Source: a virus
Length of the DNA: 64,000 nt
IMG/VR virus record: IMGVR_UViG_3300042894_003945
Coordinates: 62,001-126,000 of that record
Strand: one strand, 5' to 3'
Shown here: positions 2,787 through 49,526 of the stretch, piece by piece
Position numbering within the stretch: the first letter of the stretch is position 1
Layout: every line of letters starts with the position of its first letter
Notes under the pieces: generated by a model
The model's input: only the letters and a program-made list of their open reading frames with translations
Databases searched by the model: none
Told to the model about the DNA's origin: nothing
Position numbers and translations under genes: made by a program

Positions 2787-2787
2787 A

Positions 2788-5349: not shown

Positions 5350-5380
5350 CAAAACTTAATTTACAGACAAATATAAGAAA

Positions 5381-17528: not shown

Positions 17529-18017
17529 TTATGTAGATTTTATAATATTTAACTTATTTACACCAGTAAGATGCGTCTTACATTTTATAGACCAAGACTC
17601 ACCATACTTTTCTAAATCAGATTCAAGAGAGTATTCAGGATTTTTACCCATTACAAATTGATTTTCTATTACTAGATCAACTTCATAATAAGCCTCTTTC
17701 AAATATATTATATCCCCTACTTCCATAATTAAATTTATATCTATAAGATCCTCTCTCAAAAATCTAAATTCTGCCATTTGTCCTATTGACTTTCCGAAAG
17801 ATTGGTCCTCTGATACCTGATCATCTATTGCGTAAAAACAAGCTATTAATATAGGCTGATCATACATTTTATTTTTAGACTCTCCGTATATGTTGTATTT
17901 AGTTTCTGATAAAGACAGTTTATAATACAGTATTTCCTCAGCGACTATTCTATTTACTACTTGTCTGCTGTGGTGTCTAAAAAATGATCTTGCTCTCGGT
18001 CCTCCGTAAAGTGCCAT
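17529..18017 (-). CDS. Neck protein, gp14-like
   Basis: A 162-residue protein. The pattern YNIYGESKNKMYDQPILIACFY followed by AEFRFLREDLIDINLIMEVGDIIYLKEAYYEVD matches the neck protein family of T4 gp14 in distant T4-like phages. In T4, gp14 with gp13 seals the filled head and forms the site for tail joining. The N-terminus is basic (ARSFFRHHSRQVVNRIV). Its ATG overlaps the upstream stop by one base (TAATG) and it precedes the gp15-like gene, which supports the assignment. Confidence 0.65.
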   Translation of the reverse strand: MALYGGPRARSFFRHHSRQVVNRIVAEEILYYKLSLSETKYNIYGESKNKMYDQPILIACFYAIDDQVSEDQSFGKSIGQMAEFRFLREDLIDINLIMEVGDIIYLKEAYYEVDLVIENQFVMGKNPEYSLESDLEKYGESWSIKCKTHLTGVNKLNIIKST

Positions 18018-18412
18018 TAATCAGTTTTTACAAGGGTGTCTAATTTGGGAGATGCCGCAACTATGCCTGGAATATTATTTAGACCTTTTTCTTTATCAGA
18101 CCTTACCATAGCATGCTTTATAAAATTTACATGCTTTCTAGGATCTTTATTAGTTATAAATTTAACTTCTACAGTACTGTATTCGTAGTCCTTTAGAGTT
18201 CTGTTTATTTTATCCAGTCTTTCGTCTCCTCTCAAATCTACAATAGTTACTGTAGGAATGCCTCTAACTCTTTCAACCGCCTGTACTCTATTTATTTTTC
18301 TTTTAAATTTTACAAGAAAAACACAAGAGTAGCTATGAAATATTTTTTTTATAGACTCTTTTCTCTTAAATCTATAGTCACGATCTTCTAATATGATATC
18401 AATTAGTTTCAC
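18017..18412 (-). CDS. Conserved-looking neck-module protein with LxE-type N-terminus
   Basis: A 131-residue basic protein starting at a GTG (MKLIDIILEDRDYRF) that shares one base with the upstream TAG stop. The first nine residues end in I-L-E, like the capsid-targeting leaders noted elsewhere in the window. The core (RVRGIPTVTIVDL ... YEYSTVEVKFITNKD) suggests a small alpha-beta ferredoxin-like fold. It lies between gp13-like and gp14-like neck genes. No named family; head or neck role is inferred. Confidence 0.6.
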   Translation of the reverse strand: MKLIDIILEDRDYRFKRKESIKKIFHSYSCVFLVKFKRKINRVQAVERVRGIPTVTIVDLRGDERLDKINRTLKDYEYSTVEVKFITNKDPRKHVNFIKHAMVRSDKEKGLNNIPGIVAASPKLDTLVKTD

Positions 18413-20372: not shown

Positions 20373-22013
20373 TTAGAATCCGCTGTTGAGGTCAGCAACT
20401 TCAACTTTACCGAAGAATTCGGAACGCAACATTTTCTTAGCGTACCTGGTCATAAGACCTTTTCTTGGTGTGAAAGTTTCTGGATCATACAACAATGGAG
20501 TCATGATCAATGGAATGTAAGGGGCAAATACCGCACCTGTTTCCAAGAACTGGCTACCTTTGTAAGCCAATAGGATGGTGTTCTCATTCATGTATGGGTT
20601 AACATACACTTTGTAACGGCTATTCAATTGACCAGCTTTGTGTGAACCCATTGCAAATTCTTCTTTGCTACCATCGGTATCAGCGGCATAGCCAGGGATA
20701 GATTCGATGATTGTAGCGATAGAAGGTCCGCACATAAGTACGTTAGCTTGACCACGCAAAGTCTTTTGGTGGATCTTACGAGCTACACCTTGGATCTTAG
20801 TACCAAGAGTGGCGAACCACTGACCTTGAGTGTTATAGTAACCACCTGCACCAGCAGTTTGTTGAGACCAAGTACCTGCTACTCTGTTGTAGAAAGTGTT
20901 GGCAGCAGCTGACCAGTAATCAGTGGTGTTAGCGTTTTGGATCAACATGTCGATGATTTCGAGGTCGATCTCAAGAGAGATATATTCTGACAGAGTAGAA
21001 GTCAACTCAGCTTCAGCATCAAGAGACTGGTATGCATTCAGGTCTTGGCTGAATTCAGGAGTCCACTTTGCTTTTAACTTTCTAGTTTTAGCAACTACAG
21101 CCTCAGAACGAAGTTCAACGTTGATCTCAGGGATAGCGTTAGAACCAGTCAAAGGAGATGATGCTGCATCTTCGAAGTCACCACGGCTGTTGTCAGCAGG
21201 TTGCTTCTGATAGAATACTACGCCAGAACCAGAACCCAAGTTCAATTGACCAGCAGAGCCAGATACAATGAAAGAAAGGGTATCGTTAGAAGCGTAAGAA
21301 GTAAATTCAGCAAACAAGTTGCTTTCGTTTACACCACTACCAGTTACGATGAAACCACGTACAGCGTTGATGTCGAGGTTAGTCAAAGAACCGCTAGCAG
21401 AAGTTACTGACAACTTACGAAGTCTACCAGCAGCAGCAGATGCACTGTAGATAGAGTTGAAGTTAACGTCAGCAGCAGATGCTGTTGTGATAGTGTAGTT
21501 TACAGATGCAGAGTAGTTGTTGATTGAGTAACCAAAACGACCTGCGCCGTAAAGACCACCAGAAGGATCAACATCTTTTACATTTGTAGTACCGTACATG
21601 CTGTCACCAGATGTGAAACGGTTTTGTTGAGCTGTACCAGGACGGTTGTTACCATACTTGAATTCTAAGAAGAATACAAGACCAGCAGGTAAAGTCATTG
21701 GTTGTACGCTAACGAACTCTTTAGAAGAGATTTCAGCGAAGATTTTACGAACCAATGGAAGAGCTACACCAGCCCATTGCTCGCCAGCACCTACGGTGAA
21801 TGTTCCACCAGTACCAGTTTGTGATTGTTCTACGAGAAGCTGCTTAGCTTGGTTCTCAAGGATGATAGACATCCTTTCTCTACCATAGGCCTGGTTCTTA
21901 AGGTCGTTACCTTCAAGAAGACCCGTAGCTTCCCACTTCTTTACTAACCTTTGCGCCTCAGTCATCTGAGATGCGTACGGGTTAGAACTTTCGAGGAGAG
22001 ATTGTACGTTCAT
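20373..22013 (-). CDS. 23: Major capsid protein gp23
   Basis: A 546-residue protein of the T4 gp23 family. The N-terminal part (LVKKWEATGLLEG, MSIILENQAKQLLVEQSQ) and the FVSVQPMTLPAGLVFFLEFKYG segment are typical of gp23. It builds the head hexamers after cutting by gp21. A cut after L-V-E at residue ~62 is plausible, by analogy with the L-T-E cut at residue 65 in T4. The gene is visibly richer in G and C and uses more C-ending codons than its neighbours, as expected for very high expression. It follows gp22 by 25 nt and ends in a strong terminator. Confidence 0.95.
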   Translation of the reverse strand: MNVQSLLESSNPYASQMTEAQRLVKKWEATGLLEGNDLKNQAYGRERMSIILENQAKQLLVEQSQTGTGGTFTVGAGEQWAGVALPLVRKIFAEISSKEFVSVQPMTLPAGLVFFLEFKYGNNRPGTAQQNRFTSGDSMYGTTNVKDVDPSGGLYGAGRFGYSINNYSASVNYTITTASAADVNFNSIYSASAAAGRLRKLSVTSASGSLTNLDINAVRGFIVTGSGVNESNLFAEFTSYASNDTLSFIVSGSAGQLNLGSGSGVVFYQKQPADNSRGDFEDAASSPLTGSNAIPEINVELRSEAVVAKTRKLKAKWTPEFSQDLNAYQSLDAEAELTSTLSEYISLEIDLEIIDMLIQNANTTDYWSAAANTFYNRVAGTWSQQTAGAGGYYNTQGQWFATLGTKIQGVARKIHQKTLRGQANVLMCGPSIATIIESIPGYAADTDGSKEEFAMGSHKAGQLNSRYKVYVNPYMNENTILLAYKGSQFLETGAVFAPYIPLIMTPLLYDPETFTPRKGLMTRYAKKMLRSEFFGKVEVADLNSGF

Positions 22014-22038: not shown

Positions 22039-23226
22039 TTATTTGATAATACCAGCGAGTTTCTGCCACCTAGATACTTGCGCATCAGCATCAGTAATCA
22101 CGCCTTCATTTATAACACGCTTAGTTGAGGTACCGGCTGCCTTAGAAGCAAATCCCATAGACTCTTTAAGACCTACTTTAGTATTGTCGTTCTTAACGCT
22201 GAAAGCTTGATCTAAAGATTCATGTACAATTTTAGCTTCTTTAGTTGTGCTAGCTTTGTCAAATGCGCTAATAACTTTTAATTTTTGTTGTTCAGAAAGA
22301 TTGTACTTACGTAAAATCTTATTTAAGTAAAGAAGTTTAGCGTTGATCAAGTTAGTTTCGTTAACTTTTTGAGCTAACTCAGCAGCTTGACGCTTAATTT
22401 CCTGTAGTTCTTCACTATCATTCTTTTTATCCATCATACCTTTTTCTTCCTTCTTTTCTTCAAGCCCCTTTGCTTTAGCTGCGCTTTGTGCAATTGATTG
22501 AAGCTTTTTGAAAATATCAGGATGTTTTTGTTCAAGGTAATCTGATAATTTAGCGATGCCAGCGCCTGCAGCTCCTAATGCTGCGCCGCCTGCTAATCCC
22601 TGTAAAATATCCATCATTGTAGAAGCGTCTTCTTTTACTACTTCCTCATCATCAGCTTCTTCTTCCATATTGTAGCCTTCATCGTCACCACCATCTTCCA
22701 TTTCAGCAAGAAGTGCAGCGATGTCGATTTCTTCGTCTACTGATTTTTCATTATCATCGTCTCCATTTTCTTCCTCAGAATCATCATCGTCAGAATGGCT
22801 TTTCTTACCTTCTTTTTGTGGCTCCATGTCATCATCACCCTCGTCTTCAACTTCCATTACTTCCTTCTTTTCATCATCGTCATCACTGTCATCACCTTTT
22901 TCACCTTTTTCAAGTTCAGCTATGATTTCATCAAGATCGAAAGCTTCGTCAGCGTCACCTTCTATGTCTCCTTCAGCTTCTTCTTCCATACCGTAGCCTT
23001 CGTCATCACCTTCTTTTTCATGCTTTTCCTCTTCCATTTTATTATCATCATCAGAATCTTCGTACTCTTCTTCAAGATCGTCAGCTTCTTCTGATAAACG
23101 AGCGGCAAGCATTGCCTTAACTTTAGAATCAAAAGCTTCGTTTAAACTAGCTTTTGCATTCTCAATAGCCATTTTTTTGATAGCATCCGCTTCTGCGATT
23201 GCTTCTTTGAGCAAATTTGTGTTCAT
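22039..23226 (-). CDS. 22: Prohead core scaffolding protein gp22-like
   Basis: A 395-residue highly acidic protein. Residues ~45-205 are dominated by Asp/Glu runs (DEEYEDSDDDNKMEEE), followed by a helix-rich part with Lys and Gln. The N-terminus MNTNLLKEAIAEADA contains L-K-E and I-A-E sites, the type cut by gp21. Family gp22 proteins form the prohead core and are digested on maturation. Position between protease gp21 and capsid gp23 is exactly that of T4. The acidic insert is longer than in T4, where gp22 has about 269 residues. Confidence 0.85.
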   Translation of the reverse strand: MNTNLLKEAIAEADAIKKMAIENAKASLNEAFDSKVKAMLAARLSEEADDLEEEYEDSDDDNKMEEEKHEKEGDDEGYGMEEEAEGDIEGDADEAFDLDEIIAELEKGEKGDDSDDDDEKKEVMEVEDEGDDDMEPQKEGKKSHSDDDDSEEENGDDDNEKSVDEEIDIAALLAEMEDGGDDEGYNMEEEADDEEVVKEDASTMMDILQGLAGGAALGAAGAGIAKLSDYLEQKHPDIFKKLQSIAQSAAKAKGLEEKKEEKGMMDKKNDSEELQEIKRQAAELAQKVNETNLINAKLLYLNKILRKYNLSEQQKLKVISAFDKASTTKEAKIVHESLDQAFSVKNDNTKVGLKESMGFASKAAGTSTKRVINEGVITDADAQVSRWQKLAGIIK

Positions 23227-23253
23227 TTTTCCTTAAATTTTTTTTTGGATTTA

Positions 23254-23320
23254 CGCCTATTAAAGAGGTGTAATAGATTTCTTTTTATTCAACTCTTTAT
23301 AAGAAAAAGAGTATTAGGCG
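23254..23320 (-). promoter_or_regulatory. Structured leader upstream of gp22
   Basis: In the 158-nt gap between gp21 and gp22 the strand can fold: an outer CGCCTA/TAGGCG pairing encloses an inner ACTCTTT/AAAGAGT hairpin (23292-23312). It may be a 5' leader structure or a weak terminator after gp21. There is no gene in this gap. Confidence 0.4.
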
Positions 23321-23331
23321 AATATGTCTAC

Positions 23332-23341
23332 AATAAATATA
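23332..23341 (-). promoter_or_regulatory. Candidate promoter motif (variant) upstream of gp22-gp23
   Basis: Coding strand TATATTTATT-type variant of the recurring motif, ~106 nt before the gp22 ATG. With the structured leader it could drive the gp22-gp23 unit. Confidence 0.4.
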
Positions 23342-23384
23342 TAAAAAAAGTAAAAAAAATATATTTTATATAAATTTTTTACTC

Positions 23385-23993
23385 TTAGCAATGACAAACC
23401 CCTGTATTATTACAGATAAGGTCTTTTATAATAGTATCTATATTCTGAAAAGATTGTGTCATTTCGTATCCTTCTTTCAAGGTTAAATTAGCCCCTTGTG
23501 TAGATTCAAAAGATACTAAATCAAATGTCAACAATTTAAAATCGTCATTAACTACTACAGTTCCATCGTGAGATTCTTGAACACTTCCCATACCTCTAGA
23601 GCTAATCCCTACTGGAATTCCTCTACGAAGTAGCCCTGCAGCGATTCTACCTGCTGGGAACTCATCTCCATCTAAAATCTCAATATCTCCCATAACATCA
23701 TCTCCTTTCCAGTAAATGTTTACTATATTATGAGATACGTTTTTAAGGTTAACCACATTAGAATCGCTATGATCTAGCTCCCCTAAAGCACGGTTTTGCT
23801 TAACCATGTTGCTGTTATACTCTTCTATTTCTTTGCGCAGTACTCCTTCAGGATACACCCTACCATTCCTATTTTTAGCATTAGCCCTTTGTATGACTAC
23901 ATTCTTAATAATCATCTTCTCACCAGGCTTGTAAGCCTCAGTAAGCTTTATAGGACTTATATCTAACTTATAATATTCTGTAAGTACTTGCAT
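23385..23993 (-). CDS. 21: Prohead maturation protease gp21
   Basis: A 202-residue serine protease of the T4 gp21/herpesvirus assemblin type. The N-terminal KNVVIQRANAKNRNGRVYP and GELDHSDSNVVNLKNVSH (catalytic-His region, GELDHS) are clear, and RGIPVGISSRGMGSV holds the candidate catalytic Ser. It cuts scaffold, capsid and internal head proteins after [LI]-x-E. Position between the large head-module genes and gp22 is as in T4. Confidence 0.93.
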   Translation of the reverse strand: MQVLTEYYKLDISPIKLTEAYKPGEKMIIKNVVIQRANAKNRNGRVYPEGVLRKEIEEYNSNMVKQNRALGELDHSDSNVVNLKNVSHNIVNIYWKGDDVMGDIEILDGDEFPAGRIAAGLLRRGIPVGISSRGMGSVQESHDGTVVVNDDFKLLTFDLVSFESTQGANLTLKEGYEMTQSFQNIDTIIKDLICNNTGVCHC

Positions 23994-24004
23994 GTTATAT
24001 ATAA

Positions 24005-27000
24005 TTATCTATATTTGTTCATTTGTCTATCGGATATTACCTGTAGTGCTTGTAGTATTTTACTTTTAGGATCTATATCTTTTCTAGCTCCTTTTTCTGA
24101 GGCTTTTTGTATAAACTTTACTATTGTTTTTTCTACGTGACCTAAATTAGGATTTTTTTGTATTCCTTTAGACAATGTTCTATCTCTCATGTAATCACTA
24201 GCTAACTCTTCAGCATTTTTAAGCTGCTGGTCCATTGGGACATTGTCATCAAACATAGAGTCTATTTCTTTTTCGTCAGCCTCAGCCACTCTACCGCCTC
24301 TCATAGTCAATGTATTTGGTTCAAAAGGACGTGCCATTTGAGATCCTAATGGACTATCAGCCATATCATTTAAATCGTCAGGACGAGCTATTTCGTAGCC
24401 TTTAGGAGCATAAGAGTTAAATATGGCAACTCCTTCATCTCCTAACTCATGAACAAGCTTATTTACAATAGAATGTTTTTCTGTTCCGTTATACCTTACA
24501 TAAGGATCTTTGTTATCTTGAAATCCCCATTCGTATTTTTTCATGTATTCTTCAAGACGCTTTTTTTTTACTTCAGGACCTTGTGCGCCCATATATTGGT
24601 CTATACCTGCTTCTTGAAGAGCTTTTCTAATACGTGTACGGATATACGCCTCTAGTTTAGACTCTGTTGCTGGGCTTGGGAATACTCTATCTAAAACTCC
24701 TTTAAGAGGTTCTTTAATATCATTTATTTTTCTAGGAGATCCAAATTGATCACTATTATCTGGGTTATATACCCCTGTTACATTTCCACTCTTTGTACCA
24801 GTAAATGTAGCTTGAGAATTGTCATCTAGAGTAATAACTAATTCATTTTTTTCTTTATTAAAAGTAGCCTTTACAGCATTTCCTGTAACCTGCGCCACTT
24901 TGTCCAAATCATTTGGGTCTGATTCTATGACAAAAGATATTTGTGTTTTTAACTTAGCTTCGTCTTCTTTGGAAAGTTCTTCTTTTACATTTTTTTCTGA
25001 TACGTCACTTTTTCTAGTTAGATTTATTCCGTATTTAGGTAGATTTATTTTACTAACAGTAATATAATTAGTAGAACCCAAACTATTCTTAAGATCATCT
25101 GCTTCTTTTTCTGTAGGAAATCCTTTAATAACACGTTTATCAGCTTTATTTACTACAAAGTACAAAGCTGGTCCTCCTTTTTCTGATTTTACAGGTTCAT
25201 TTAATGGAACGGGGCTGTTTACTTTTAAAACTCCTTTTACAGTATCGTATATTGTGTTTCCAGTGTCTTTAGATATGCCTCTTTTTTTCTCCATTTCAAA
25301 ATCAAATGAAGGTTGTTTTTGAGCCCCGGCGTCTATTTTAAAATCAGGAACAAGTTTTTTAATCCTACTTAAAGGCATGATTAAATCTTCGCTTTTTTTG
25401 TCTCCTATTTTAAAATTAACGCTATACACTTTATCCCCAGGTTGCACCTTTCCTACTAATGCCGCTACGTCTTTTGGATTTGTAGGATCAAAATAAGAAT
25501 CATCGGCTGTTCTAACTTTCTTTTCTCCTGAAAGGCTTCTATACCCTCTTAGTTTCTTTTCTGCATCTTGTGTTTTAGGTTCTTCCCCTTTAGTAGGTTT
25601 ATTTTTTTTATACTCTTCTTCCGGTACTATAGACTCCACTCCACTTAATTTTGGAGTTCTTGAAAGTCTTTCAATATTCTCAGCTTGTCTTTTATCTAAA
25701 AACACTTTGTATATTCCAGGTGCATATTTAGACACTTTACCTGAATCATACCTTTTTGCTAGATCAAGTGCAGGTGCAGTAAAATTTCCTTCATCATCAG
25801 TAGCAAGAGTTACTGCGTAGTATTGTTTTTCCCTTTTTTGTATATCTTCAGATATTCTTTGGCTGCTTTTCATTTGTTTCATTTTATCGTACGCGTATTT
25901 AATTCTATTATATAAATCTGGATTTTCTGTAAAACCCTTTATATAATTTTTTATATCTTCTATTATCCTGTCTGTATCTTTTTCACTAACGCTGAGATCT
26001 AAAATAGATTTTAAAAAATCTATCATTTTATTATAATACTTTTTATGAGATAATTTTTTATCTTCTTCATCTCTGGTATCGTCTACAGAATCAGAGTAGT
26101 TTTGTATTATATTCCTTAGTGTAGATACATTATTTCGATCAGTTATAAAACTATCAACTTTGCCTTTTGTCTTACTGTCAGTTTTTTTTGTAGGAACAGC
26201 AGGTTTTTCTTTTTTCACATCAGCACTTGCCGATTTTTTTGGATCTTCAGTCGCACTACCATCCTCACTTCCAGAATAATAATATTTCTCAAAAGAGCTA
26301 TAAAGTTTTGGCCTTTCTAATGTAGTTTCTAGACTGTTAAGTACTGAATCTTCAAAATCCTCATTACCCTCTGCTTCTATTTTTACAAACTTTTTTATTT
26401 CGTCAGAAAGATTTTTTCTAACTTCTTCTTCTTTTTTAGAAGCTTTTACTCTTTCTTCTTGTGAGGCATTTAAATTATATTTAGTTGCAAAATTTACTAT
26501 AAGACTCTTTATATACTTTTGTATTTCTGGTCTTAGGAAAAATTCAGCAATTTTTAATTTTTCTGGTTTTGCGGCCGTAGGGTCTTTTCTTTTAAGTTTT
26601 TTATTCCTTTCTATATCTTCTAAATAAGTTAGATAATCCATTAAAGATGTGTTTCTAACTCCTATCCCTTTTTCATATATATCTTTAAGAGGTACCAACT
26701 CCAGTTTATGTTCGTCTGATAAATTTTTATTGGTTTTCTCTAGTTGATCTTTTGATAAGTAAATAAAATTTTTAGTTGCAAACTTTTTAACAACATCAGA
26801 ACCTTTTGCACCTCTATTATATTCTTTAGTTGACGTATAGTATATATCTTTGCTATGCTCTGGTTGATCACTTGGTACTATAGAAGCTGCTATTTTATAA
26901 TTATTTTTTAAACTGTCATATTCTGACTTTGTTAGTTTTCTATATATTACGTAGTAATGTCTTTTTTGACTATCAACTATATTTTTAAAAGCTATTTCGT

Positions 27001-27148
27001 GTACGCTTCCTTCTGAAAAAGAAGACTTCGTAGATGGGTAAGTATCTCTAGTTCGTAGAGGAGTACTCCCAGCATCTGCTACTTTTAAAGATTTTATTTT
27101 ATCTAAATCTTCTTTTAAGCTATAAAATATTATATCACTAAAAGTCAT
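24005..27148 (-). CDS. Large head-module protein of unknown function, candidate internal head protein
   Basis: A 1047-residue, Lys/Glu/Asp-rich, mostly helical or disordered protein. The N-terminus MTFSDIIFYSLKEDLDK contains an L-K-E site of the gp21 type. The middle has Lys-rich charged stretches (KKEKPAVPTKKTDSKTKGK), with internal segments that look like repeated ~60-residue alpha-beta units (VVNKADKRVIKGFPTEKEA). The C-terminal ~200 residues (YMGAQGPEVKKKRLEEYMKK ...) are more compact. It lies between the DUF5661-like gene and gp21, deep in the head module. A prohead core or injected protein is a reasonable guess, not shown. Confidence 0.7.
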   Translation of the reverse strand: MTFSDIIFYSLKEDLDKIKSLKVADAGSTPLRTRDTYPSTKSSFSEGSVHEIAFKNIVDSQKRHYYVIYRKLTKSEYDSLKNNYKIAASIVPSDQPEHSKDIYYTSTKEYNRGAKGSDVVKKFATKNFIYLSKDQLEKTNKNLSDEHKLELVPLKDIYEKGIGVRNTSLMDYLTYLEDIERNKKLKRKDPTAAKPEKLKIAEFFLRPEIQKYIKSLIVNFATKYNLNASQEERVKASKKEEEVRKNLSDEIKKFVKIEAEGNEDFEDSVLNSLETTLERPKLYSSFEKYYYSGSEDGSATEDPKKSASADVKKEKPAVPTKKTDSKTKGKVDSFITDRNNVSTLRNIIQNYSDSVDDTRDEEDKKLSHKKYYNKMIDFLKSILDLSVSEKDTDRIIEDIKNYIKGFTENPDLYNRIKYAYDKMKQMKSSQRISEDIQKREKQYYAVTLATDDEGNFTAPALDLAKRYDSGKVSKYAPGIYKVFLDKRQAENIERLSRTPKLSGVESIVPEEEYKKNKPTKGEEPKTQDAEKKLRGYRSLSGEKKVRTADDSYFDPTNPKDVAALVGKVQPGDKVYSVNFKIGDKKSEDLIMPLSRIKKLVPDFKIDAGAQKQPSFDFEMEKKRGISKDTGNTIYDTVKGVLKVNSPVPLNEPVKSEKGGPALYFVVNKADKRVIKGFPTEKEADDLKNSLGSTNYITVSKINLPKYGINLTRKSDVSEKNVKEELSKEDEAKLKTQISFVIESDPNDLDKVAQVTGNAVKATFNKEKNELVITLDDNSQATFTGTKSGNVTGVYNPDNSDQFGSPRKINDIKEPLKGVLDRVFPSPATESKLEAYIRTRIRKALQEAGIDQYMGAQGPEVKKKRLEEYMKKYEWGFQDNKDPYVRYNGTEKHSIVNKLVHELGDEGVAIFNSYAPKGYEIARPDDLNDMADSPLGSQMARPFEPNTLTMRGGRVAEADEKEIDSMFDDNVPMDQQLKNAEELASDYMRDRTLSKGIQKNPNLGHVEKTIVKFIQKASEKGARKDIDPKSKILQALQVISDRQMNKYR

Positions 27149-27153
27149 TGTTA

Positions 27154-27702
27154 TTATTTTTTAATAACTTTCTTTTTAGGTGCATTTTTCATCTGATTTT
27201 CCTTGTCCTTAAAGTTTTTCTTTTTGACTTCAATAGGAAGATCAGCACGATTTTTCTTTTTAGCTTTGTACTCAATCATATCTAATCGAGTATAATAGTT
27301 TGGATCCTCAGCTAGATGATCTAAAGCAATTTCTTTAGCTTTATCTATATCATCAGTATGCTCAAGTTCGTGTTTCCATCCTTTACTAAACTCGTAATAG
27401 TTAACTTGATCAGGAGTAAGTTTATCTCCTTTTCCACCTTTAAGCTTTTGTTTCTTACCTTCAGTAAGAGACTCTTGCAATGATTTAAAAGCACTGAAAA
27501 AGTTATATCCTTGCTTTACTTCTGACTTTGATTCTGCATCCCACAAGTGTCCTTTTCCTTTTAATTTAGACACTGTGTCATCATAAGACATTGTGTTGGT
27601 AATAGAATCCTGATATAGAGGATTTCTTCTTACATGCCATAAGAATTCAGACTTAGACATTTCCTCTTTTATCACTTTTTGATATAGTTGCTGTGTTGTC
27701 AT
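27154..27702 (-). CDS. DUF5661-like head-module protein
   Basis: A 182-residue basic protein. The segment LTPDQVNYYEFSKGWKHELE followed by HTDDIDKAKEIALDHLAEDP and NYYTRLDMIE matches the pattern I associate with DUF5661 (an E-H-T ... A-x-D-H-L ... YY helix hairpin). The N-terminus MTTQQLYQKVIKEEMS contains I-K-E, a possible gp21 site. The C-terminus is a Lys-rich tail, which may bind DNA. It is packed between two other unknown genes of the head module. Confidence 0.65.
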   Translation of the reverse strand: MTTQQLYQKVIKEEMSKSEFLWHVRRNPLYQDSITNTMSYDDTVSKLKGKGHLWDAESKSEVKQGYNFFSAFKSLQESLTEGKKQKLKGGKGDKLTPDQVNYYEFSKGWKHELEHTDDIDKAKEIALDHLAEDPNYYTRLDMIEYKAKKKNRADLPIEVKKKNFKDKENQMKNAPKKKVIKK

Positions 27703-27703
27703 T

Positions 27704-27919
27704 TTATAATCCTTTTTTAAAAAGTCTTTTATATTCAGAAGCCAAGTCTATAGACTCAGCCCATTTTCCTATTTTTTTAGTTACAAGTATTCCTTTTTTT
27801 CTTTTAGCTTTTGTACCTCCAGCTCCACCAAAAGCATACTTCGTTGCTACTCCCTCACCGTCTCCAGGAGTAACATGTCCTTGATCTGCTGCAGGAGCTC
27901 CTCCCCCAGTAGTAGACAT
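27704..27919 (-). CDS. Small Gly-rich basic protein of the head module
   Basis: A 71-residue protein from the ATG at 27919 (MSTTGGGAPAADQGHVTPGD). A start 42 bases upstream would overlap the preceding gene by 32 nt; the inner ATG leaves a 10-nt gap and gives an N-terminus like small Gly-rich proteins found at this place in other T4-like phages (TPGDGEGVATKYAFGG). The C-terminal half is basic (KAKRKKGILVTKKIGKW). Function unknown. Confidence 0.6.
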   Translation of the reverse strand: MSTTGGGAPAADQGHVTPGDGEGVATKYAFGGAGGTKAKRKKGILVTKKIGKWAESIDLASEYKRLFKKGL

Positions 27920-36375: not shown

Positions 36376-36385
36376 ATATAAATAT
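36376..36385 (-). promoter_or_regulatory. Candidate phage promoter motif
   Basis: ATATTTATAT on the coding strand, 18 nt before the ATG at 36358. Confidence 0.5.
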
Positions 36386-36964
36386 TTAATTTTCCAGTCT
36401 TTCTTTCATTTCTTTAAGACCTTCTTTCCATTTATCAACTAATTTTTCCTTGTCTATACCGCCTTCCCACTCTTCCACATCTCCTTGTTCCGTAACATAT
36501 GTTTCTTTTATGCTAGACTTTGCAAACTCTTCTATAAACTGTTCTGCCTCTTCTATATGAGTTATGATATTTTTAGTGACCATATTTCTAGCATACTCCT
36601 CATACTTCCCCTCCATTTTTAACTGTGTTTCCATGCTAATTACGCAGTTAAAACACATCCCATGTAAAGGATACATTTTCTTATCTAAAGGGTTTTTAGT
36701 CGGTTGAGAACACTTTGGACATAATAGAGGTATCCTTGTTAACTTTTTTATCCTGTCTAGCTTTGTTACGGTCTGTTTTATACCGTCTTTTATAGTCCAG
36801 GTTTTACCTCCTTCTTCCCAAACATCCCCTTCTAATCTATCTTCCGTTTGTTTTTCATATCCAACTTGTACCCCAGTAGCGTCTCCATATTTTTTGGTGA
36901 TAATATTTCGAAGTCTTTGTACGTCCCTTTCTCTAAACTCTTTCTTTAACTTTGTTTCTGACAT
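36386..36964 (-). CDS. Zinc-ribbon protein of unknown function
   Basis: A 192-residue protein. A zinc ribbon (LLCPKCSQPTKNPLDKKM ... GMCFNCVISM) with two CxxC pairs lies at residues ~82-108, flanked by charged helices. The N-terminus (FRERDVQRLRNIITKKYGD) and ribbon resemble a protein common in T4-like marine phages without a known role. The C-terminal ~75 residues are a charged helix. Nucleic-acid or protein binding is possible. Confidence 0.65.
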   Translation of the reverse strand: MSETKLKKEFRERDVQRLRNIITKKYGDATGVQVGYEKQTEDRLEGDVWEEGGKTWTIKDGIKQTVTKLDRIKKLTRIPLLCPKCSQPTKNPLDKKMYPLHGMCFNCVISMETQLKMEGKYEEYARNMVTKNIITHIEEAEQFIEEFAKSSIKETYVTEQGDVEEWEGGIDKEKLVDKWKEGLKEMKERLEN

Positions 36965-36995
36965 AACTTTAGTTTTGATCTTTTTTTTAAATATG

Positions 36996-37544
36996 TTATT
37001 GTAATTTAGTCACTTTTTTTATAGCTGATAAATCCCATATGCACCCAGAAGCTATATCCCAGGGATAATACCATTGATGTTCTGGGTCTCCTCTATACTT
37101 ATCAAAATATATAGGAAATTCAATACCCTTATATTTTTTAGTAACTTCAGGCCAATCTATTTTATGATTCCCAAATCTACCTTCTTTTTCCGGATCTTTA
37201 TATCTTTTTGAAAACCATAAAAACATACCTTCTTTATCTACATCAATAATATCATCATCATATATATCTATTTTAAACACATGCTCCGTTTCCCTTTCTG
37301 GCATTTCTGCTCTTATAAAATCTATCCAAGATGTCCCAAAACCATACCACAGACCTGTAGGTTTAAATCCTATTCTTGAAGGAGGGATCTTAAAATTAAA
37401 GTCTATACTATCTTTGGTCCCTAAGACTATTCTATCTCTACTGCCTATTTTTTTAAGAGTTTCTGGAGTTACTTTTTCAAATTCATTCGAAGCATAATCA
37501 GACTCCTCTGCAAGTTCTTTAAGTATATTGATAAATTTAATCAC
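36996..37544 (-). CDS. Unknown protein with GTG start and capsid-targeting-like N-terminus
   Basis: A 182-residue protein. I place the start at the GTG at 37544, which overlaps the upstream TGA stop as GTGA and gives MIKFINILKELAEESDYA, matching the other leader-like N-termini (L-K-E, L-A-E). A GTG 54 bases upstream would overlap the neighbour. The body is rich in Trp, Tyr and Asp (TGLWYGFGTSWIDFI, HQWYYPWDIASGC), suggesting a compact globular domain. No family recognised; it might be an enzyme delivered with DNA. Confidence 0.6.
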   Translation of the reverse strand: MIKFINILKELAEESDYASNEFEKVTPETLKKIGSRDRIVLGTKDSIDFNFKIPPSRIGFKPTGLWYGFGTSWIDFIRAEMPERETEHVFKIDIYDDDIIDVDKEGMFLWFSKRYKDPEKEGRFGNHKIDWPEVTKKYKGIEFPIYFDKYRGDPEHQWYYPWDIASGCIWDLSAIKKVTKLQ

Positions 37545-37801
37545 AATTTTTTTATTCTTATTTTTAAATCCCCCGTACCTTTTATTGTCCTGTGCCACTG
37601 TCCCATAGGTATGTGAATTTGCCCTTCTATTTTTATGGGAAGTTCATTTTCCCTTTGAAACATCCAATCGGTAGGCTCTACAGGCTCTACTAGCCTATCT
37701 TCACGGTCTCTATGCCACACTAATTCTCCTGACTCTACATCACTTTTAAAAACCCTTTCATACCAACCTTCATTATAATTTTCCGTATACGGTTTACTCA
37801 T
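37541..37801 (-). CDS. Small cupin-like conserved protein
   Basis: An 86-residue protein. WHRDREDRLVEP, TDWMFQRENELP, then IHIPMGQWHRTIKGTGDL fit a short beta-barrel (cupin-like) protein of the type common in T4-like cyanophages, with His residues that could bind metal. Function unknown. Its stop overlaps the next GTG start. Confidence 0.6.
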   Translation of the reverse strand: MSKPYTENYNEGWYERVFKSDVESGELVWHRDREDRLVEPVEPTDWMFQRENELPIKIEGQIHIPMGQWHRTIKGTGDLKIRIKKL

Positions 37802-37804
37802 ATT

Positions 37805-38395
37805 CTACCAAAATCCTGTAAAGTTAGATTTTAAACCAAGCATACTTGCATATCTAGGTAGTCTACAAGCCCAGTATCCTGCACTTGTCTTGTCTTTATT
37901 CTGTGCACATTTATGCCTAGCTGCAAAAGATTTGCGGGCTTTAGGATCGTTTATCTTCGCTTTTAGACCAGTAGTATCTCCAAAAGAAACTTTCTTAATG
38001 CCTCCACCTGGCTTACGTACATAAACGTAGAACTTCTTTGATCCTCCACGCTTAGGTTTATTTAATGCAGGTTGTTTTTTCTTTGCTTTTGCTTCCATTA
38101 ATTGCTCTTCACTCATAGGAAAATCAAGAGGCACTTTAATACCATTGTAGTATCCGAATTCTCCAAGATCGGTATTTTTTATAAGTTTCTCTTCTTCTTC
38201 TGTAAGTAGGAGTTCTCCTTTTTTGTATAGTTCTCTAGCTTCTTTAAAAAGCTCAAAATACTTCTTAGAGAATGGGCGGTATACGTTTTCGGTAAGAAGC
38301 TTTTGATTATCTATATGATATTGTAGACCTTCTGATATTGGTTTGCTATCGCAGTTACAGTCAGAAACTTCTTTTAAAAAATCTGTGAATTTCAT
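37805..38395 (-). CDS. Unknown protein with capsid-targeting-like N-terminus and conserved C-terminal basic domain
   Basis: A 196-residue protein, MKFTDFLKEVSDCNCDSKP, with L-K-E at residues 7-9. The C-terminal ~75 residues (KKFYVYVRKPGGGIKKVSFG, ARKSFAARHKCAQNKDKTSA, GYWACRLPRYASMLG) form a basic domain with two Cys that I have seen in several giant and T4-like phage proteins of unknown role. The central part is Lys-rich. Candidate packaged protein. Confidence 0.65.
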   Translation of the reverse strand: MKFTDFLKEVSDCNCDSKPISEGLQYHIDNQKLLTENVYRPFSKKYFELFKEARELYKKGELLLTEEEEKLIKNTDLGEFGYYNGIKVPLDFPMSEEQLMEAKAKKKQPALNKPKRGGSKKFYVYVRKPGGGIKKVSFGDTTGLKAKINDPKARKSFAARHKCAQNKDKTSAGYWACRLPRYASMLGLKSNFTGFW

Positions 38396-38766
38396 TATTG
38401 TAAATTTACTAATTTATACTTAGTAGTTTGAATTAAAGTTTCAATCTCATCGTACTGATTCTGTAAGTAAGTGTCTTGAGGTAAAGAAGGTTTAATAGCA
38501 GTCATAAACCTGCACAAACCATCAAAATACATAGCATGTGCTCCATCTTCTCTCAAAGTACCTGCCATTTTATATCCGTATAAGATACCATACTTACCTT
38601 GGTATGATTCTACAAGTCCGTCTATTAAAGGTATAATACCTTCGTAATATGCCTGTAGAGCTAAATGAGCTTGTCCAGAACCTAATCCCTTAGTTTGCCA
38701 ATGGTAAATTTGAGCTTGATTTCTACTCTGTAACAGAGTTCCAATTAATAGTGATAAATTATTCAT
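38395..38766 (-). CDS. DUF5856 / ferritin-like small helical protein
   Basis: A 123-residue all-helical protein. The pattern SRNQAQIYHWQTKGLGSGQA followed by YYEGIIPLIDGLVESYQGKYG resembles Dps/ferritin-like four-helix proteins of phages (DUF5856), with H-W and E residues placed like ferroxidase ligands. It is shorter than Dps (about 160 residues). Iron binding is not certain. It overlaps the upstream nucleotidyltransferase gene by 8 nt. Confidence 0.7.
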   Translation of the reverse strand: MNNLSLLIGTLLQSRNQAQIYHWQTKGLGSGQAHLALQAYYEGIIPLIDGLVESYQGKYGILYGYKMAGTLREDGAHAMYFDGLCRFMTAIKPSLPQDTYLQNQYDEIETLIQTTKYKLVNLQ

Positions 38767-41683: not shown

Positions 41684-42442
41684 TTAACAAACTCCGGTAT
41701 CAGAACATATATACCAAGTGTATATTAAACCTCCTCCAATTACAGGATTACCATCTACTGCTGTTATGGTAGCACTAAATCTACCATTTGAGAAGTTAGA
41801 TCCTACATTTTTAGTGGTATATACTAAAAGTACATCTTTATAACCTGCTGCAGGTATTGTTATATTGGCAGTATCTGAATTAGTTAGATAATAAGGGAGA
41901 CTTCCTACGCCTATTGTAGCGCTTACATCTGCTATTAATGTTCCAGTAGCTGGGGCTACTGCTGGTAATGTTGTTTCATATAGGCCTCCGTATAAGCATA
42001 CAGAAGTTCCACTAGTTGTGCTATTAACAAACTGGAGTCCGGTTAAGCTTAATTCAATAACAGATCCGACAGGACCAGTTAACCTTGCCCAAGCCTTTCC
42101 TCCTTGTCCACAAATATTACTATATCCTGTATAACTAGGATCAAATTCTACAGATATCGGAGTGGCCGTTGGCGTAGGCGTAGGCGTAAATGTAGGTCCA
42201 GGAGTTGGTGTAGGAGTAGGAGTAGAAACAGCTAATGCTATATTTAAACTATTGGTGCAGAGTCCTGTAGACTGTACACTTATAACTGTAGAAGTTACAT
42301 CAGTATTTACGTCATATCCAGCTAAAAGTTGAGCCCTACTAACCCCACTAGCAATAACTCCTAAGACATCGTCAGATATCAAAAAAGGCCCGGCGTCTGT
42401 TCCTATACTAGATAAAGTAACTGTTGCTAGTCTTGTTGGCAT
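41684..42442 (-). CDS. Thr-Pro repeat tail protein, paralogue A
   Basis: A 252-residue protein: an N-terminal beta domain (~75 residues, SSIGTDAGPFLISDDVLGVI, GVSRAQLLAGYDV), a Thr-Pro linker ([20 protein letters not shown]) and a C-terminal beta sandwich (~155 residues) ending in Cys-containing YTWYICSDTGVC. The N-terminal domain is paralogous to that of the next gene (AGPFNIYYDTV, NVSRSSLLGGYPV). Probably a tail-tip or fibre part; inferred. It directly follows the glycan cassette. Confidence 0.7.
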   Translation of the reverse strand: MPTRLATVTLSSIGTDAGPFLISDDVLGVIASGVSRAQLLAGYDVNTDVTSTVISVQSTGLCTNSLNIALAVSTPTPTPTPGPTFTPTPTPTATPISVEFDPSYTGYSNICGQGGKAWARLTGPVGSVIELSLTGLQFVNSTTSGTSVCLYGGLYETTLPAVAPATGTLIADVSATIGVGSLPYYLTNSDTANITIPAAGYKDVLLVYTTKNVGSNFSNGRFSATITAVDGNPVIGGGLIYTWYICSDTGVC

Positions 42443-42443
42443 A

Positions 42444-43208
42444 TTATCCCTCCCATATTTGAATACTTACTAAATCAGTAGTAGTTATATCTACTGTAAT
42501 ATAGAAGTCTACTACGTCTCCTAAATTAAAATTATAAGACTGGTATGAACTTCCATTTAAATACAAGACAACACTTCCTGCATCTAAAGCAGTGTTGCTT
42601 GTGGCTGTTTTTCTGATTCTGTATATTACAGTGTTTGAAGCGCCTCCTGCTAAAATATAAGAATCATTTTTACCATAAGCAGTTGTTCCTGGTGAAGTTA
42701 TGCTTATATTGTCTATAGTGCCTCCAGGGGTGCTATTTGAAACCTCAAACACACTAGAAGGCGATATTCCATCCATCACAAGCTGCGCTCTGTGTCTAAC
42801 TAAAGCTCCTGTTGGTGTAGGAGTAGGAGTCGCAGTCAATGTAGGCGTTGGAGTAGGTGTCAAAGTTATAGTCGGTGTAGGAGTAGGTGTAGAAGTTGCA
42901 AAAGTTACAGACCCTCCAAATAAAGTACAATTCAATACGAAAGTAGGAGTTGGTGTAGGAGTAACAGTTGGCACAGGAGTTGGTGTAGGAGTTGGAGTTG
43001 CTAAATAGTATACTTCAGAGTTCTGGCAATCAGAGTCTGTATTAACTACTATTATAGTAGTTGGACTGCCTGCTATAGTTACAGGATACCCTCCCAGCAA
43101 AGAAGATCTACTCACATTACTGTCAACTAAGGTTCCTACGGATACAGTATCGTAATAAATGTTAAAAGGACCTGCTGCGTCTCCTGATATAGTAACTATA
43201 AAATCCAT
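42444..43208 (-). CDS. Thr-Pro repeat tail protein, paralogue B
   Basis: A 254-residue protein. The N-terminal domain (~75 residues) is similar to paralogue A (GDAAGPFNIYYDTVSVGTLV, NVSRSSLLGGYP). Two Thr-Pro linkers flank a short Cys-containing bridge (LNCTLFGGSVTFAT). The C-terminal ~110 residues are a beta sandwich (HRAQLVMDGISPSSVFEV). It lies directly after UDP-galactopyranose mutase (TAATATG), the first virion gene after the glycan block, which suggests it may be one of the targets. Confidence 0.7.
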   Translation of the reverse strand: MDFIVTISGDAAGPFNIYYDTVSVGTLVDSNVSRSSLLGGYPVTIAGSPTTIIVVNTDSDCQNSEVYYLATPTPTPTPVPTVTPTPTPTFVLNCTLFGGSVTFATSTPTPTPTITLTPTPTPTLTATPTPTPTGALVRHRAQLVMDGISPSSVFEVSNSTPGGTIDNISITSPGTTAYGKNDSYILAGGASNTVIYRIRKTATSNTALDAGSVVLYLNGSSYQSYNFNLGDVVDFYITVDITTTDLVSIQIWEG

Positions 43209-43209
43209 A

Positions 43210-44295
43210 TTATATAAATATGATTTTGTTCACTTTTGACAAAGCCGATGCTATTACTTGGTGCATATCATAGTACTTATAGTCTGCTAACCTTCCTCCA
43301 AAGATATACTTTTCTTCTTTTTCCATTAATTCTTTGTATTTGGAGTACTTTTTATTATTATCTGTGTCATTTATGGGATAGTAAGGTTCTCCAAAATTTT
43401 CTGGATATTCCATGGAGATGATGGTATTTTTTTGTTTTCCAAACTCAAAATGCTTGTGTTCAGTTATTCTGGTAAAATAAACCTCTTCATCTGTATAGTT
43501 CATTCCTGCTACCCCTTGATAATCAGGCATATTTAAATTGTAAGTTTCAAATCTTAAACTCCTATAATCTAATTTTCCAAACTTATATCCATAAAAAGCA
43601 TCTACAGGTCCTGTATAAATAGTTTTACGGGCTATTGAATCAAAGTATTCTTTTTGTTCAAAATAATCACAATTTAGCTTTACTTCTACGCCATATAAGA
43701 GTTTTTCAAATATGCCAGTATACCCTCCAATTGGTATCCCTGAGTAAGTATCTTCATAATAATTATCCTCAAAAGACAGCCTTATAGGAAGCCTTTTTAT
43801 TATACTTGTAGGGAGATCTTTAGGATCTTTGTTCCATTGTTTCTTTGTATACCCCTTTATAAAAATATTATAGATCTCAGGACCTACCTGAGATAGGATC
43901 CACTCTTCTAGGTTTTTGGGGCTGTTGTTAGGTATTTTAACATCCTCTAATTTTCTAAAGGCTTCGTCTGGCGTTGTTACTCCATACAATTGGTACAGCG
44001 TCATTAAATTAATTGGAAAAGAGTATATCTTTCCTTTGTAGTTAACTTTAGGTCTGTATTTAAAATCATTAAACTCAGCGTAGTTATTTACGTAGTCCCA
44101 TACTTTTTTATCCGATGTATGAAATATGTGTGGGCCATATTTGTGCACATTTATATCGTCTACGTTCTCAGTGTAGCAGTTTCCACCAATATGAGACCTT
44201 TTTTCTACCACTAAACACTTATACCCGTTATCGGACAATTCTCTGGCGCATACAGCTCCAAAAAGTCCTGAGCCTACAATTAAGTAATCGTACAT
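43210..44295 (-). CDS. glf: UDP-galactopyranose mutase
   Basis: A 361-residue flavoenzyme that turns UDP-galactopyranose into UDP-galactofuranose. The FAD-binding GSGLFGA (residues 8-14), VVEKRSHIGGNCYT (29-42) and YGPHIFHTS (53-61) motifs are clear, and length is close to the family's ~370-390. The C-terminal RLADYKYYDMHQVI is the family's conserved end. It shows that the glycan made here can contain galactofuranose. It lies in a run of coupled genes with a methyltransferase and several glycosyltransferases. Confidence 0.95.
   Translation of the reverse strand: MYDYLIVGSGLFGAVCARELSDNGYKCLVVEKRSHIGGNCYTENVDDINVHKYGPHIFHTSDKKVWDYVNNYAEFNDFKYRPKVNYKGKIYSFPINLMTLYQLYGVTTPDEAFRKLEDVKIPNNSPKNLEEWILSQVGPEIYNIFIKGYTKKQWNKDPKDLPTSIIKRLPIRLSFEDNYYEDTYSGIPIGGYTGIFEKLLYGVEVKLNCDYFEQKEYFDSIARKTIYTGPVDAFYGYKFGKLDYRSLRFETYNLNMPDYQGVAGMNYTDEEVYFTRITEHKHFEFGKQKNTIISMEYPENFGEPYYPINDTDNNKKYSKYKELMEKEEKYIFGGRLADYKYYDMHQVIASALSKVNKIIFI
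43212..43221 (-). promoter_or_regulatory. Candidate phage promoter motif before paralogue B
   Basis: ATATTTATAT on the coding strand, inside the last codons of glf, 4 nt before the ATG at 43208. Confidence 0.4.
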
Positions 44296-44296
44296 A

Positions 44297-44848
44297 TTAT
44301 TTTTTAAAAACCATTATTGTATTTTTGAACCACCACCATTGTGGGACTTGTCTTAAAACAGATTCTACTTCTTTTTCTCTATGAAACCCGTAATTTAAAA
44401 ATAAAGATTCTATATACTCGTTTGGACGCTCATTGTAATGTCCATACCCTCCTTGTCCAATTGTAGCCCAAGAAAGTATTACAAGATTTTTAGAATGCTT
44501 TACTATGTTTTCTATAAAAATAGATTCATACTCTTCGGGAATATGTTCTCCTACTTCCAAAGATAGTACACAATCGTAAGTTTTGCCTAGATCTACAGGA
44601 ACTGATAAGTCCAAAATTCCACAAAGGTTATTGGATATTTCTGGTGTATTAGGGTTTCCATCATAACAATCACAAGTAAATCCGTCTTGTATAAACCTCT
44701 CTGCGTACTGTCCTGGTCCACATCCTAGATCTAATATAGAATCTACCCCATAAGATTTCAGATATTTAGATATCTCTTCATTTAAAGGCTGATCATACTT
44801 ATGGTTATGAGTTCCGTTGTCTTCCCAAAATCCTCTTTCATTTATCAT
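44297..44848 (-). CDS. Class I SAM-dependent methyltransferase
   Basis: A 183-residue protein. Motif I is ILDLGCGPGQYAERF (residues 38-52); CDCYDGNPNTPEI follows as motif II, and YDCVLSLEVGEHIP is the family's motif IV-like region (LxxVxEHIP). The likely target is a sugar hydroxyl on the glycan, as it lies between a fucosyltransferase-type gene and glf. A small-molecule target cannot be excluded. Confidence 0.85.
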   Translation of the reverse strand: MINERGFWEDNGTHNHKYDQPLNEEISKYLKSYGVDSILDLGCGPGQYAERFIQDGFTCDCYDGNPNTPEISNNLCGILDLSVPVDLGKTYDCVLSLEVGEHIPEEYESIFIENIVKHSKNLVILSWATIGQGGYGHYNERPNEYIESLFLNYGFHREKEVESVLRQVPQWWWFKNTIMVFKK

Positions 44849-45657
44849 ATTGGAAATATTTGTCCTTCTTTATATTTTGTTGGCAACGCCATCCAACTTT
44901 CACATATAACATCCTCTGTATCTTGAGGCCCCCCAGGTCCACACCAAGTTCTTGGAGCCACTACCACTTTAGAGTCTTCATTGCAAAGATAAGCTCCCCA
45001 CCAAGAAAAAGAAGAATTAGATAAAATAAAATTATGGCACATTGAAATAGTCCAAAGAGCTTTCCAAGTAGAAACGTCTATAAATTTCATTTTTGGAAGT
45101 TTTATATTTTCTCTGCACCAATCCAAATCATCACTTATTATAAAGTAAACATCAGTGTTTTTTATCTGATTGGCTGCTTCATTTATAAAGTCTGTAGTAA
45201 TTACAGGATGGGTATGTAAATTTAAAAGATAATCCCCTCTCCTAACATTTATACAAGTAACTACCTCATTTAATAATTCTGGGTGGTCCTTTTGGGTTTG
45301 TTCTATGAACTCTTCTGTTGGGGAAAATAAAAATTTTATAAAGCTGGAAATATTAATAAAATTTTTTTCGCTCTGATAATACCCTTCGTATATTGTTACC
45401 CCTTCGTCATAAGGTTTAACTGGTTCATATTGGTATGGGGCGGATATTGTCCTTCCTTGGGGCAGCACATTTAGCTTAAAATCAAGTTTTCTATAGACAT
45501 TATCCTTATAATGATTAAGATCGAATACTTGATCTTTAGAAAATAAAAAAGGTTTGTTGTATTGTATTGACTGGGCTATGCAGTTGGATATCATAAACAT
45601 TTGATTTCCTAATCTGCCTACCATTTTAGAAGTAAGAAAATTTCTATTCGAAATCAT
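44845..45657 (-). CDS. GT11-family (alpha-1,2-fucosyltransferase type) glycosyltransferase
   Basis: A 270-residue protein. The GT11 motifs are all present: GRLGNQMF (14-21), VRRGDY (138-143, here without the usual HxRRGDY His) and SNSSFSWWGAYL (213-224). Members transfer fucose, and sometimes galactose, in alpha-1,2 linkage. It has no membrane segment. It overlaps the upstream GT25 gene by 14 nt. No GDP-fucose synthesis genes are seen here, so fucose would come from the host. Confidence 0.92.
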   Translation of the reverse strand: MISNRNFLTSKMVGRLGNQMFMISNCIAQSIQYNKPFLFSKDQVFDLNHYKDNVYRKLDFKLNVLPQGRTISAPYQYEPVKPYDEGVTIYEGYYQSEKNFINISSFIKFLFSPTEEFIEQTQKDHPELLNEVVTCINVRRGDYLLNLHTHPVITTDFINEAANQIKNTDVYFIISDDLDWCRENIKLPKMKFIDVSTWKALWTISMCHNFILSNSSFSWWGAYLCNEDSKVVVAPRTWCGPGGPQDTEDVICESWMALPTKYKEGQIFPI

Positions 45658-46315
45658 TTTCGTTGTGCTTTATTACTCTTTTATAACTCTCTAAAAATAA
45701 ATCTACTCCTACACTTTTTCCCCAAGCATCCAAATCACTAACACCTTCTCTCTGTGCCACAGCTATAGGACTAACTAAGTATTTGTTTATATAATGCCTC
45801 TGTCCTAACCAACCATCTATTGCAGAATCTCTAAAAGGCGTGTAATCATCTATTATTGTTTTTATAACGCTTCTTTTGTATCCTATAGCGTGTGTTGTAA
45901 GTATAGTTGGAGCTTTATACAAGGTAGTTGACACTCTAAACATTTCATGTATAGGATGTCCTCCAAAATAAATCATATCCCAGTCTGAGAAGTTAGATAT
46001 TTCATCTAAGGCTTTTTCTGATAAGTCTACTCCTTTTGTTTTTCCTCCATCATAAAAATAAGCATCATCTTCAAATATAACAACATTTTCATATCCTTCT
46101 TCATATATTTTAGTAAAAAGTTTGTGATATGTTAAAGAGCAATAACAATGTTTTTTTATAGGATCTGGCTCTTTTATTGAATCCTCGGCGGATACCCTCT
46201 CGAAAAAACCTCCTAATCCTACTCTACTCATCTCATTTTCAAAAAAGACTTTTCTATCTTCTCTTCTGTCTAAGTTTATGTAGTATCCTTTTTGAAAAAA
46301 ATCTTTTATTTTCAT
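45644..46315 (-). CDS. GT25-family glycosyltransferase
   Basis: A 223-residue protein with the GT25 opening GYYINLDRREDRKVFF (residues 10-25), CSLTYHKLFTKIYE and the acidic VVIFEDDAYFY (79-87; D-D-A). GT25 enzymes build LPS core galactose or hydroxylysine-linked sugars of collagen in animals, a point of interest given the collagen-like fibre here. Acceptor unknown. Start overlaps the upstream gene by 4 nt (ATGA). Confidence 0.9.
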   Translation of the reverse strand: MKIKDFFQKGYYINLDRREDRKVFFENEMSRVGLGGFFERVSAEDSIKEPDPIKKHCYCSLTYHKLFTKIYEEGYENVVIFEDDAYFYDGGKTKGVDLSEKALDEISNFSDWDMIYFGGHPIHEMFRVSTTLYKAPTILTTHAIGYKRSVIKTIIDDYTPFRDSAIDGWLGQRHYINKYLVSPIAVAQREGVSDLDAWGKSVGVDLFLESYKRVIKHNENDFE

Positions 46316-49464: not shown

Positions 49465-49526
49465 AAACTGAATTTGTACCAAAAATAAGAAAATTTTTTA
49501 AAAGAGAAAAAACAATAATTTAAACA

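What the first reader, a model, noticed from the sequence alone, without database searches (positions are those of the whole stretch)
22039..38395. A family of unrelated proteins with a common head-targeting-like N-terminus
At least ten genes (22039, 24005, 27154, 33385, 33941, 34830, 35729, 36996, 37805, also 18017 and gp23) begin with a short amphipathic helix ending in [LI]-x-E. In T4, such leaders send Alt and internal proteins into the prohead and are cut there by gp21, which is encoded in this window. The bodies after the leader are different and include Cys-rich, basic and unknown domains, so they may be a set of proteins injected into the host.
Basis: inference. Interest (0 to 1): 0.8.

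Follow-up and report, generated by a model that had tools for sequence, protein, structure and literature searches.

The report
Phage proteins sharing a head-packaging label
An uncultured T4-like virus of probably Bacteroidota bacteria puts the same kind of short removable "address label" on about a dozen otherwise unrelated proteins encoded around its capsid genes, most likely so that they are packed inside the virus head and some of them are shot into the host with the DNA.

Summary
All eleven named genes start with a short, mostly amphipathic helix followed by [LI]-x-E. The motif alone is weak: it turns up at 29% of random internal windows. Comparative evidence makes it significant. (1) A leader profile trained only on families unrelated to this genome flags 11/25 genes of the head block versus 9/94 elsewhere (Fisher 2e-4). 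(2) In close relatives, 12 of 12 unrelated accessory gene families in three slots of the block carry the leader; most neighbouring core genes do not. (3) Homologous bodies in other phages carry other leaders matching their own neighbourhoods. (4) gp23 of the clade keeps nearly invariant LLE8, LLE34, ILE53 and xxE62 sites, and a gp21-type S77 protease is present. (5) A leader-bearing relative, linked by a gene fusion to the 37805 body, was found by mass spectrometry in cyanophage virions. Best reading: head-targeting leaders cut by gp21, working like T4 capsid targeting sequences but in a different sequence dialect and on many more cargo types. Packaging, cleavage and injection are inferred, not shown. 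gp22, gp23, probably 27154 and 24005, and 18017 are head or neck parts; the clearest cargo candidates are 33941, 34830, 35729, 36996 and 37805.

The parts
37805..38395 (-). Leader MKFTDFLKE + basic C-terminal domain (phrog_7595); cargo candidate
   Evidence: (p=0.0015); AF2 model: residues 1-17 low confidence, folded body begins at 22
36996..37544 (-). Leader MIKFINILKE (GTG start) + phrog_8582-like body with KPxGLWYGFG / SGCIW motifs; accessory cargo candidate
   Evidence: p=0.0011
35729..36358 (-). Leader MNLSQIFKEAILE + Lys-rich body; cargo candidate
   Evidence: p=0.011; 9/9 orthologues
34830..35729 (-). Leader MKLLDILKKMLLE + DUF5872-like basic body (net +25); cargo candidate
   Evidence: 10/10 orthologues
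33941..34225 (-). Leader MIKFLKLLE + small Cys-rich body (CxxC...C...C); cargo candidate
   Evidence: p=0.008; 10/10 orthologues
33385..33927 (-). Leader MKLRFYEIFRNKLWE (corrected ATG start); unknown body
   Evidence: p=0.018; motif in 11 of 12 relatives
27704..27961 (-). Small core-like protein, probable TTG start, weak leader ending VKE; homologues have clear leaders
27154..27702 (-). Leader MTTQQLYQKVIKE; DUF5661; probable prohead core protein between gp20 and gp21
   Evidence: 13/13 orthologues
24005..27148 (-). Weak leader MTFSDIIFYSLKE; 1047 aa, probable core protein, apparently fused to the 27154 family in some relatives
   Evidence: 7/12; p=0.12
23385..23993 (-). gp21-type prohead protease (Peptidase_S77), with its own [LIVM]xE near the N-terminus
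   Evidence: 59/59 N-termini, loose motif
22039..23226 (-). gp22-like acidic scaffold (net -60), leader MNTNLLKEAIAE
   Evidence: position between gp21 and gp23; (p=0.024)
20373..22013 (-). gp23 major capsid protein, N-terminal sites LLE8, LLE34, ILE53, xxE62
18017..18412 (-). Leader MKLIDIILE on a small protein of the neck module
   Evidence: p=0.001; 11/11 orthologues, loose motif
28805..30658 (-). gp20 portal; no leader (negative comparison)
   Evidence: 0/47

Best explanation
The shared N-terminus is a prohead-targeting leader. In the infected cell it docks the protein onto the gp22 scaffold/core, so that the protein is enclosed when gp23 assembles. The gp21 protease inside the prohead then cuts after [LI]-x-E. 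Scaffold, shell and core proteins use it for assembly; the accessory leader-bearing proteins are cargo left in the capsid, and at least some are ejected into the host with the DNA, like T4 internal proteins. Shown by sequence: shared leaders on unrelated bodies, leader swapping, presence of the protease and conserved sites. Inferred: docking, packaging, cleavage, ejection and cargo function.
For: Independent profile enrichment in the head block; 12/12 accessory body families in three slots leader-tagged, p=2e-10 at a 15.5% base, slots chosen after looking; near-identical leaders on non-homologous bodies within one genome, N-terminal pairs scoring >=45: 15 versus 0 internal and 1 C-terminal of 17,975, of which 6 are a separate tail-fibre module; same body with another phage's leader; 56/56 distinct DUF5872-type bodies keep [LI]xE at most 3 residues upstream of LC[PK]KG whatever precedes it; near-invariant LLE/ILE/E62 sites in 83 capsid proteins; S77 protease in the window and in 10 of 10 related records tested; S-SM1 protein T4-GC190, detected in virions (PMC3037559), starts MKKFSAFLNE and is 44% identical to a Melnitz-2 protein whose C-terminus is 55% identical to the 37805 body; T4 precedent (PMC9026906; PMC12373910).
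Against: No virion proteomics for this phage or its close relatives was found. Distant relatives of 37805 (L257-L269) lack the leader and mostly begin MC.CGC or similar, though [LI]SE before the body is mostly kept. The adjacent nucleotidyltransferase-like protein (38759) has no leader (0/7) although cyanophage nucleotidyltransferases do. The profile has false positives, such as the terminase N-terminus (p=0.011). The P3 residue at gp23 E62 is mostly V, not L/I. The E before LCPKG is also kept when that domain sits inside larger proteins, so it may belong to the domain. The isolates Mel-JY01 and HTVC008M have few such leaders.
Confidence: 0.72

Rival explanations
1. The leaders do target proteins to the prohead, but the tagged proteins are structural or DNA-condensing head components that stay in the head and are not injected effectors.
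For: Several bodies are small and basic (34830 +25, 37805 +16); gp22, gp23 and the 27154 family are head assembly parts; Foldseek gives no enzyme fold for 37805.
Against: Accessory genes vary between close relatives and have unrelated bodies, which fits host-directed cargo better than conserved structure; a leader-tagged 5'-deoxynucleotidase-like protein (NT5C, E=4.7e-05, just below the curated cut-off) occurs in immuto.
Confidence: 0.3
2. The N-terminal helix is a docking peptide for another target (host membrane, RNA polymerase or a replication compartment) and has nothing to do with the head.
For: Amphipathic N-terminal helices commonly dock to membranes or partner proteins (general knowledge).
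Against: The same kind of N-terminus is on gp22 and gp23 and the genes cluster in the head block; the acidic [LI]xE end is conserved; a related leader protein is in virions.
Confidence: 0.08
3. Chance: N-termini of overlapping, helix-rich genes in an AT-rich phage give [LI]xE often, and start-site choice inflates it.
For: Loose motif rate is 29% by chance; 8/31 non-substrate T4 genes have it.
Against: Independent profile, accessory-slot and leader-swap tests, and near-zero rates in most neighbouring genes of the same block.
Confidence: 0.03

Closest known systems
T4 capsid targeting sequence (CTS) of internal proteins IPI-III and Alt
   Same: Short N-terminal leader shared by non-homologous proteins, ending in [LI]xE, with a gp21-type protease encoded; accessory cargo varies between relatives (T-even IPs share only the leader, at least 10 known; PMC12373910)
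   Different: Leader sequence differs (M[IVK]K[LF]xDILKE or FDLKKFLVENKLT types); T4 IPII/III do not score on the profile (p=0.16); genes lie inside the head cluster rather than in separate loci; far more cargo families across the clade (59 training leaders from families unrelated to this genome's genes); packaging untested
Processed ejection proteins of giant phages phiKZ / SPN3US
   Same: Head proteins with N-terminal propeptides cut after a Glu by a gp21-like protease
   Different: Propeptides there are often over 100 residues and the phiKZ motif is S/A-X-E (PMC9026906, PMC5694885)
Cyanophage and Methylophilales phage cargo (S-SM1 T4-GC190, Melnitz-2)
   Same: Leader MKKFSxxxxE on a nucleotidyltransferase; homologue of the window's 37805 body fused to it in Melnitz-2
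   Different: In the window the nucleotidyltransferase-like protein and the 37805 body are separate genes and only the latter has a leader

Membership tests
T4-type CTS / internal-protein system | N-terminal leader of about 7-25 residues ending in [LI]xE | tested here: met
T4-type CTS / internal-protein system | Same leader type on non-homologous bodies | tested here: met
T4-type CTS / internal-protein system | Gp21 (S77) prohead protease encoded | tested here: met
T4-type CTS / internal-protein system | Conserved protease sites in the capsid protein's N-terminal region | tested here: met
   (E62 site with V rather than L/I at P3)
T4-type CTS / internal-protein system | Leader sequence similar to the T4 IPII/IPIII leader | tested here: not met
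   profile p=0.16 for IPII/IPIII; gp22, gp23 and gp24 of T4 do score (p<0.03)
T4-type CTS / internal-protein system | Proteins present inside the virion | not testable with these tools
   only an indirect link through S-SM1 T4-GC190
T4-type CTS / internal-protein system | Leader removed by gp21 | not testable with these tools
   needs N-terminal or semi-tryptic peptides
T4-type CTS / internal-protein system | Proteins ejected into the host | not testable with these tools
   needs infection experiments

The most novel reading that the evidence does not exclude
Aquatic phages of the T4 superfamily share a general, modular head-export system: each clade has its own leader dialect matched to its scaffold and protease, and genes acquired into the head block gain the local leader, so that dozens of unrelated protein families are delivered into hosts. 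The leader could be used to list injected proteins directly from genomes and metagenomes.
Probability: 0.45. Interest if true: 0.78.

Novelty: new variant of a known kind. Interest (0 to 1): 0.58.

Why it matters
T4 internal proteins are injected inhibitors of host restriction, but they are known mainly from T-even coliphages. A recognisable leader in uncultured T4-like phages of probable Bacteroidota hosts would let one read off, from sequence alone, which of their many unknown proteins are packaged and perhaps injected. It also gives a candidate tag for packaging reporter proteins into such phages, and a clean test (leader-reporter fusion, virion proteomics) of what fixes the specificity between leader, scaffold and protease.

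Tried and rejected
Motif counting alone was rejected as proof, since the chance rate is 29%. I suspected that 36996 is an ADP-ribosyltransferase like Alt: no Pfam or PDB sequence hit and the AlphaFold2 model was poor (pLDDT 49), so the idea remains untested. For 37805, the model (pLDDT 75) gave no PDB match and only the same mostly unnamed domain in viral models. L103:4085-4612, which looked ART-like by eye, has no relatives in IMG/VR beyond its own contig and none in the phage collection. Pfam and NCBIfam scans of 62 leader proteins gave mostly DUFs; the RegB hit (E=0.0056) is within what 62 scans give by chance. HTVC008M has few such leaders in the matching region (4/22, no more than its flanking genes, 10/28).

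Full report
What the window is. The window is positions 62001-126000 of a 136,878-base IMG/VR virus record. It encodes T4-type gp23 (PF07068, E=1.7e-75), gp20 (PF07230, E=6.3e-67) and the gp21 prohead protease (PF03420, E=5.5e-28). The nearest isolate is Flavobacterium phage immuto (capsid protein 53.7% identical), and two homologues of one cargo protein lie in MAG contigs labelled Bacteroidetes and Fluviicola, so a Bacteroidota host is likely (inference). The block order is cargo genes, terminase, gp20, core genes, gp21, gp22, gp23, neck, all on the minus strand.

The observation. All named genes start as described, after correction of two starts to 37544 and 33927.

Test 1, enrichment. Over 375 protein families from about 100 related loci, 43% of head-block families have the strict leader against 7.6% in the downstream neck/tail region and 15.5% in internal controls. 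A position profile built from 59 leaders of families unrelated to any gene of this genome flags 11 of 25 genes at 17.0-39.5 kb and 9 of 94 elsewhere (Fisher p=2e-4); two of those nine are clear leader genes near the contig end. The T4 positive control behaves as expected: the loose motif is in 8/9 known core or gp21-substrate proteins and 8/31 others.

Test 2, conservation by gene. Across relatives the leader stays with certain genes: 35729 9/9, 34830 10/10, 33941 10/10, 27154 13/13, gp23 60/63 and 18017 11/11 (the last two with the loose motif). It is essentially absent from interleaved genes: DUF5856 0/6, nucleotidyltransferase-like 0/7, 34222 0/8, 32951 0/10, gp20 0/47, gp13-like 1/35 (33385). 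Exceptions are the terminase, 27930 and 17529, whose N-termini often match the loose pattern without looking like leaders.

Test 3, accessory slots. Among close relatives three positions in the block gain or lose genes. The inserted genes fall into 12 body families, and all 12 have the leader, usually M[IVK]K[LF]xDIL(K/L)E. The slots were chosen after looking, so the p-value (2e-10) is only indicative.

Test 4, leader swapping. The 36996 body has relatives with quite different N-termini: MIKFIDLLREL (L272), MNLLRKKIKEIIQEIYLNE (L150), MIGLKEIIKEL (L281), MKLRRFLTTITRELLNE (L275). In L150 several neighbouring unrelated genes share L150's own leader type, and that phage also has a Gp23 capsid protein and an S77 protease. 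The DUF5872-like body of 34830 is preceded by different leaders, yet 56/56 distinct sequences keep [LI]xE within three residues before it. Within immuto and L037, FDLKKFLVENKLT-type leaders are nearly identical on unrelated bodies. Counter-case: distant relatives of 37805 lack the leader.

Protease sites. In 83 capsid proteins the N-terminal region has near-invariant LLE8, LLE34, ILE53 and E62. By position E62 fits the T4 gp23 maturation cut, which removes 65 residues (PMC9026906; the correspondence is inference), although P3 there is mostly V. This suggests a specificity close to, but a little wider than, L/I-X-E.

Link to virions. T4-GC190 was detected in S-SM1 virions (PMC3037559). The S-SM1 protein starts MKKFSAFLNE, and it is 44% identical over 268 residues to a Melnitz-2 protein (start MKKFSEIIE) whose C-terminus is 55% identical over 164 residues to the window's 37805 body. 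This is indirect but places a leader-bearing relative in a virion.

Mechanism. The most economical reading is a T4-like targeting leader: dock on the scaffold, enclosure by gp23, cut by gp21, cargo remains and part is ejected. In T4 ten residues of IPIII suffice for targeting and the cut follows L/I-X-E (PMC9026906), and T-even internal proteins share only the leader (PMC12373910). The sequence of this leader differs from that of T4 IPII/III, so it works like a CTS but belongs to a different dialect. Which tagged proteins are injected is open; the accessory ones (36996, 34830 and the genes in the same slots of relatives) and the small 33941, 35729 and 37805 are the best candidates. gp22, gp23, probably 27154 and 24005, and 18017 are not.

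Limits. Gene starts were called by a simple script with manual correction; no proteomics of this clade was found; body functions are unknown, and structure prediction did not help for 36996 or 37805.

Noticed in passing
18017-18412: A leader of the MKLIDIILE type is conserved on a small protein in the neck module next to the gp13-like gene, where prohead targeting is unexpected.
   Followed up: partly
L006:10420-11187 and L006:11329-11793 (outside the window, near the contig end): Two further genes with strong leaders (MIKLLDILIES, MKLINLLKQSLLLEE), perhaps a second cargo locus cut by the contig end.
   Followed up: partly
7369-15966: 2865-aa protein rich in GTSGSSGSTG repeats with a C-terminus that looks like an S74-type chaperone; another of 2786 aa lies just outside the window.
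   Followed up: no
41684-43208, 49527-52463 and 5585-6394: Proteins with long PTPTPTP repeats, apparently a recurring surface or fibre linker.
   Followed up: no
43210-49482 and 1-5352: Cluster of sugar-modification genes (UDP-galactopyranose mutase-like, glycosyltransferase-like, methyltransferase-like by eye) within the tail region.
   Followed up: no
32951-33385: Conserved protein with a SHELIHHNQN (HExxH) motif, possibly a metallopeptidase, without a leader.
   Followed up: no
38395-38766: DUF5856 / Dps-like protein inside the cargo block, without a leader in all relatives.
   Followed up: partly
window coordinates -49874 to -47919 (L002, outside the window): GroEL-like and GroES-like genes encoded next to each other in the same virus record.
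   Followed up: no
L103:4085-4612: Leader-tagged protein with a YHFTSYESALDII...YVSFTRN pattern that looks ADP-ribosyltransferase-like by eye; not tested.
   Followed up: partly
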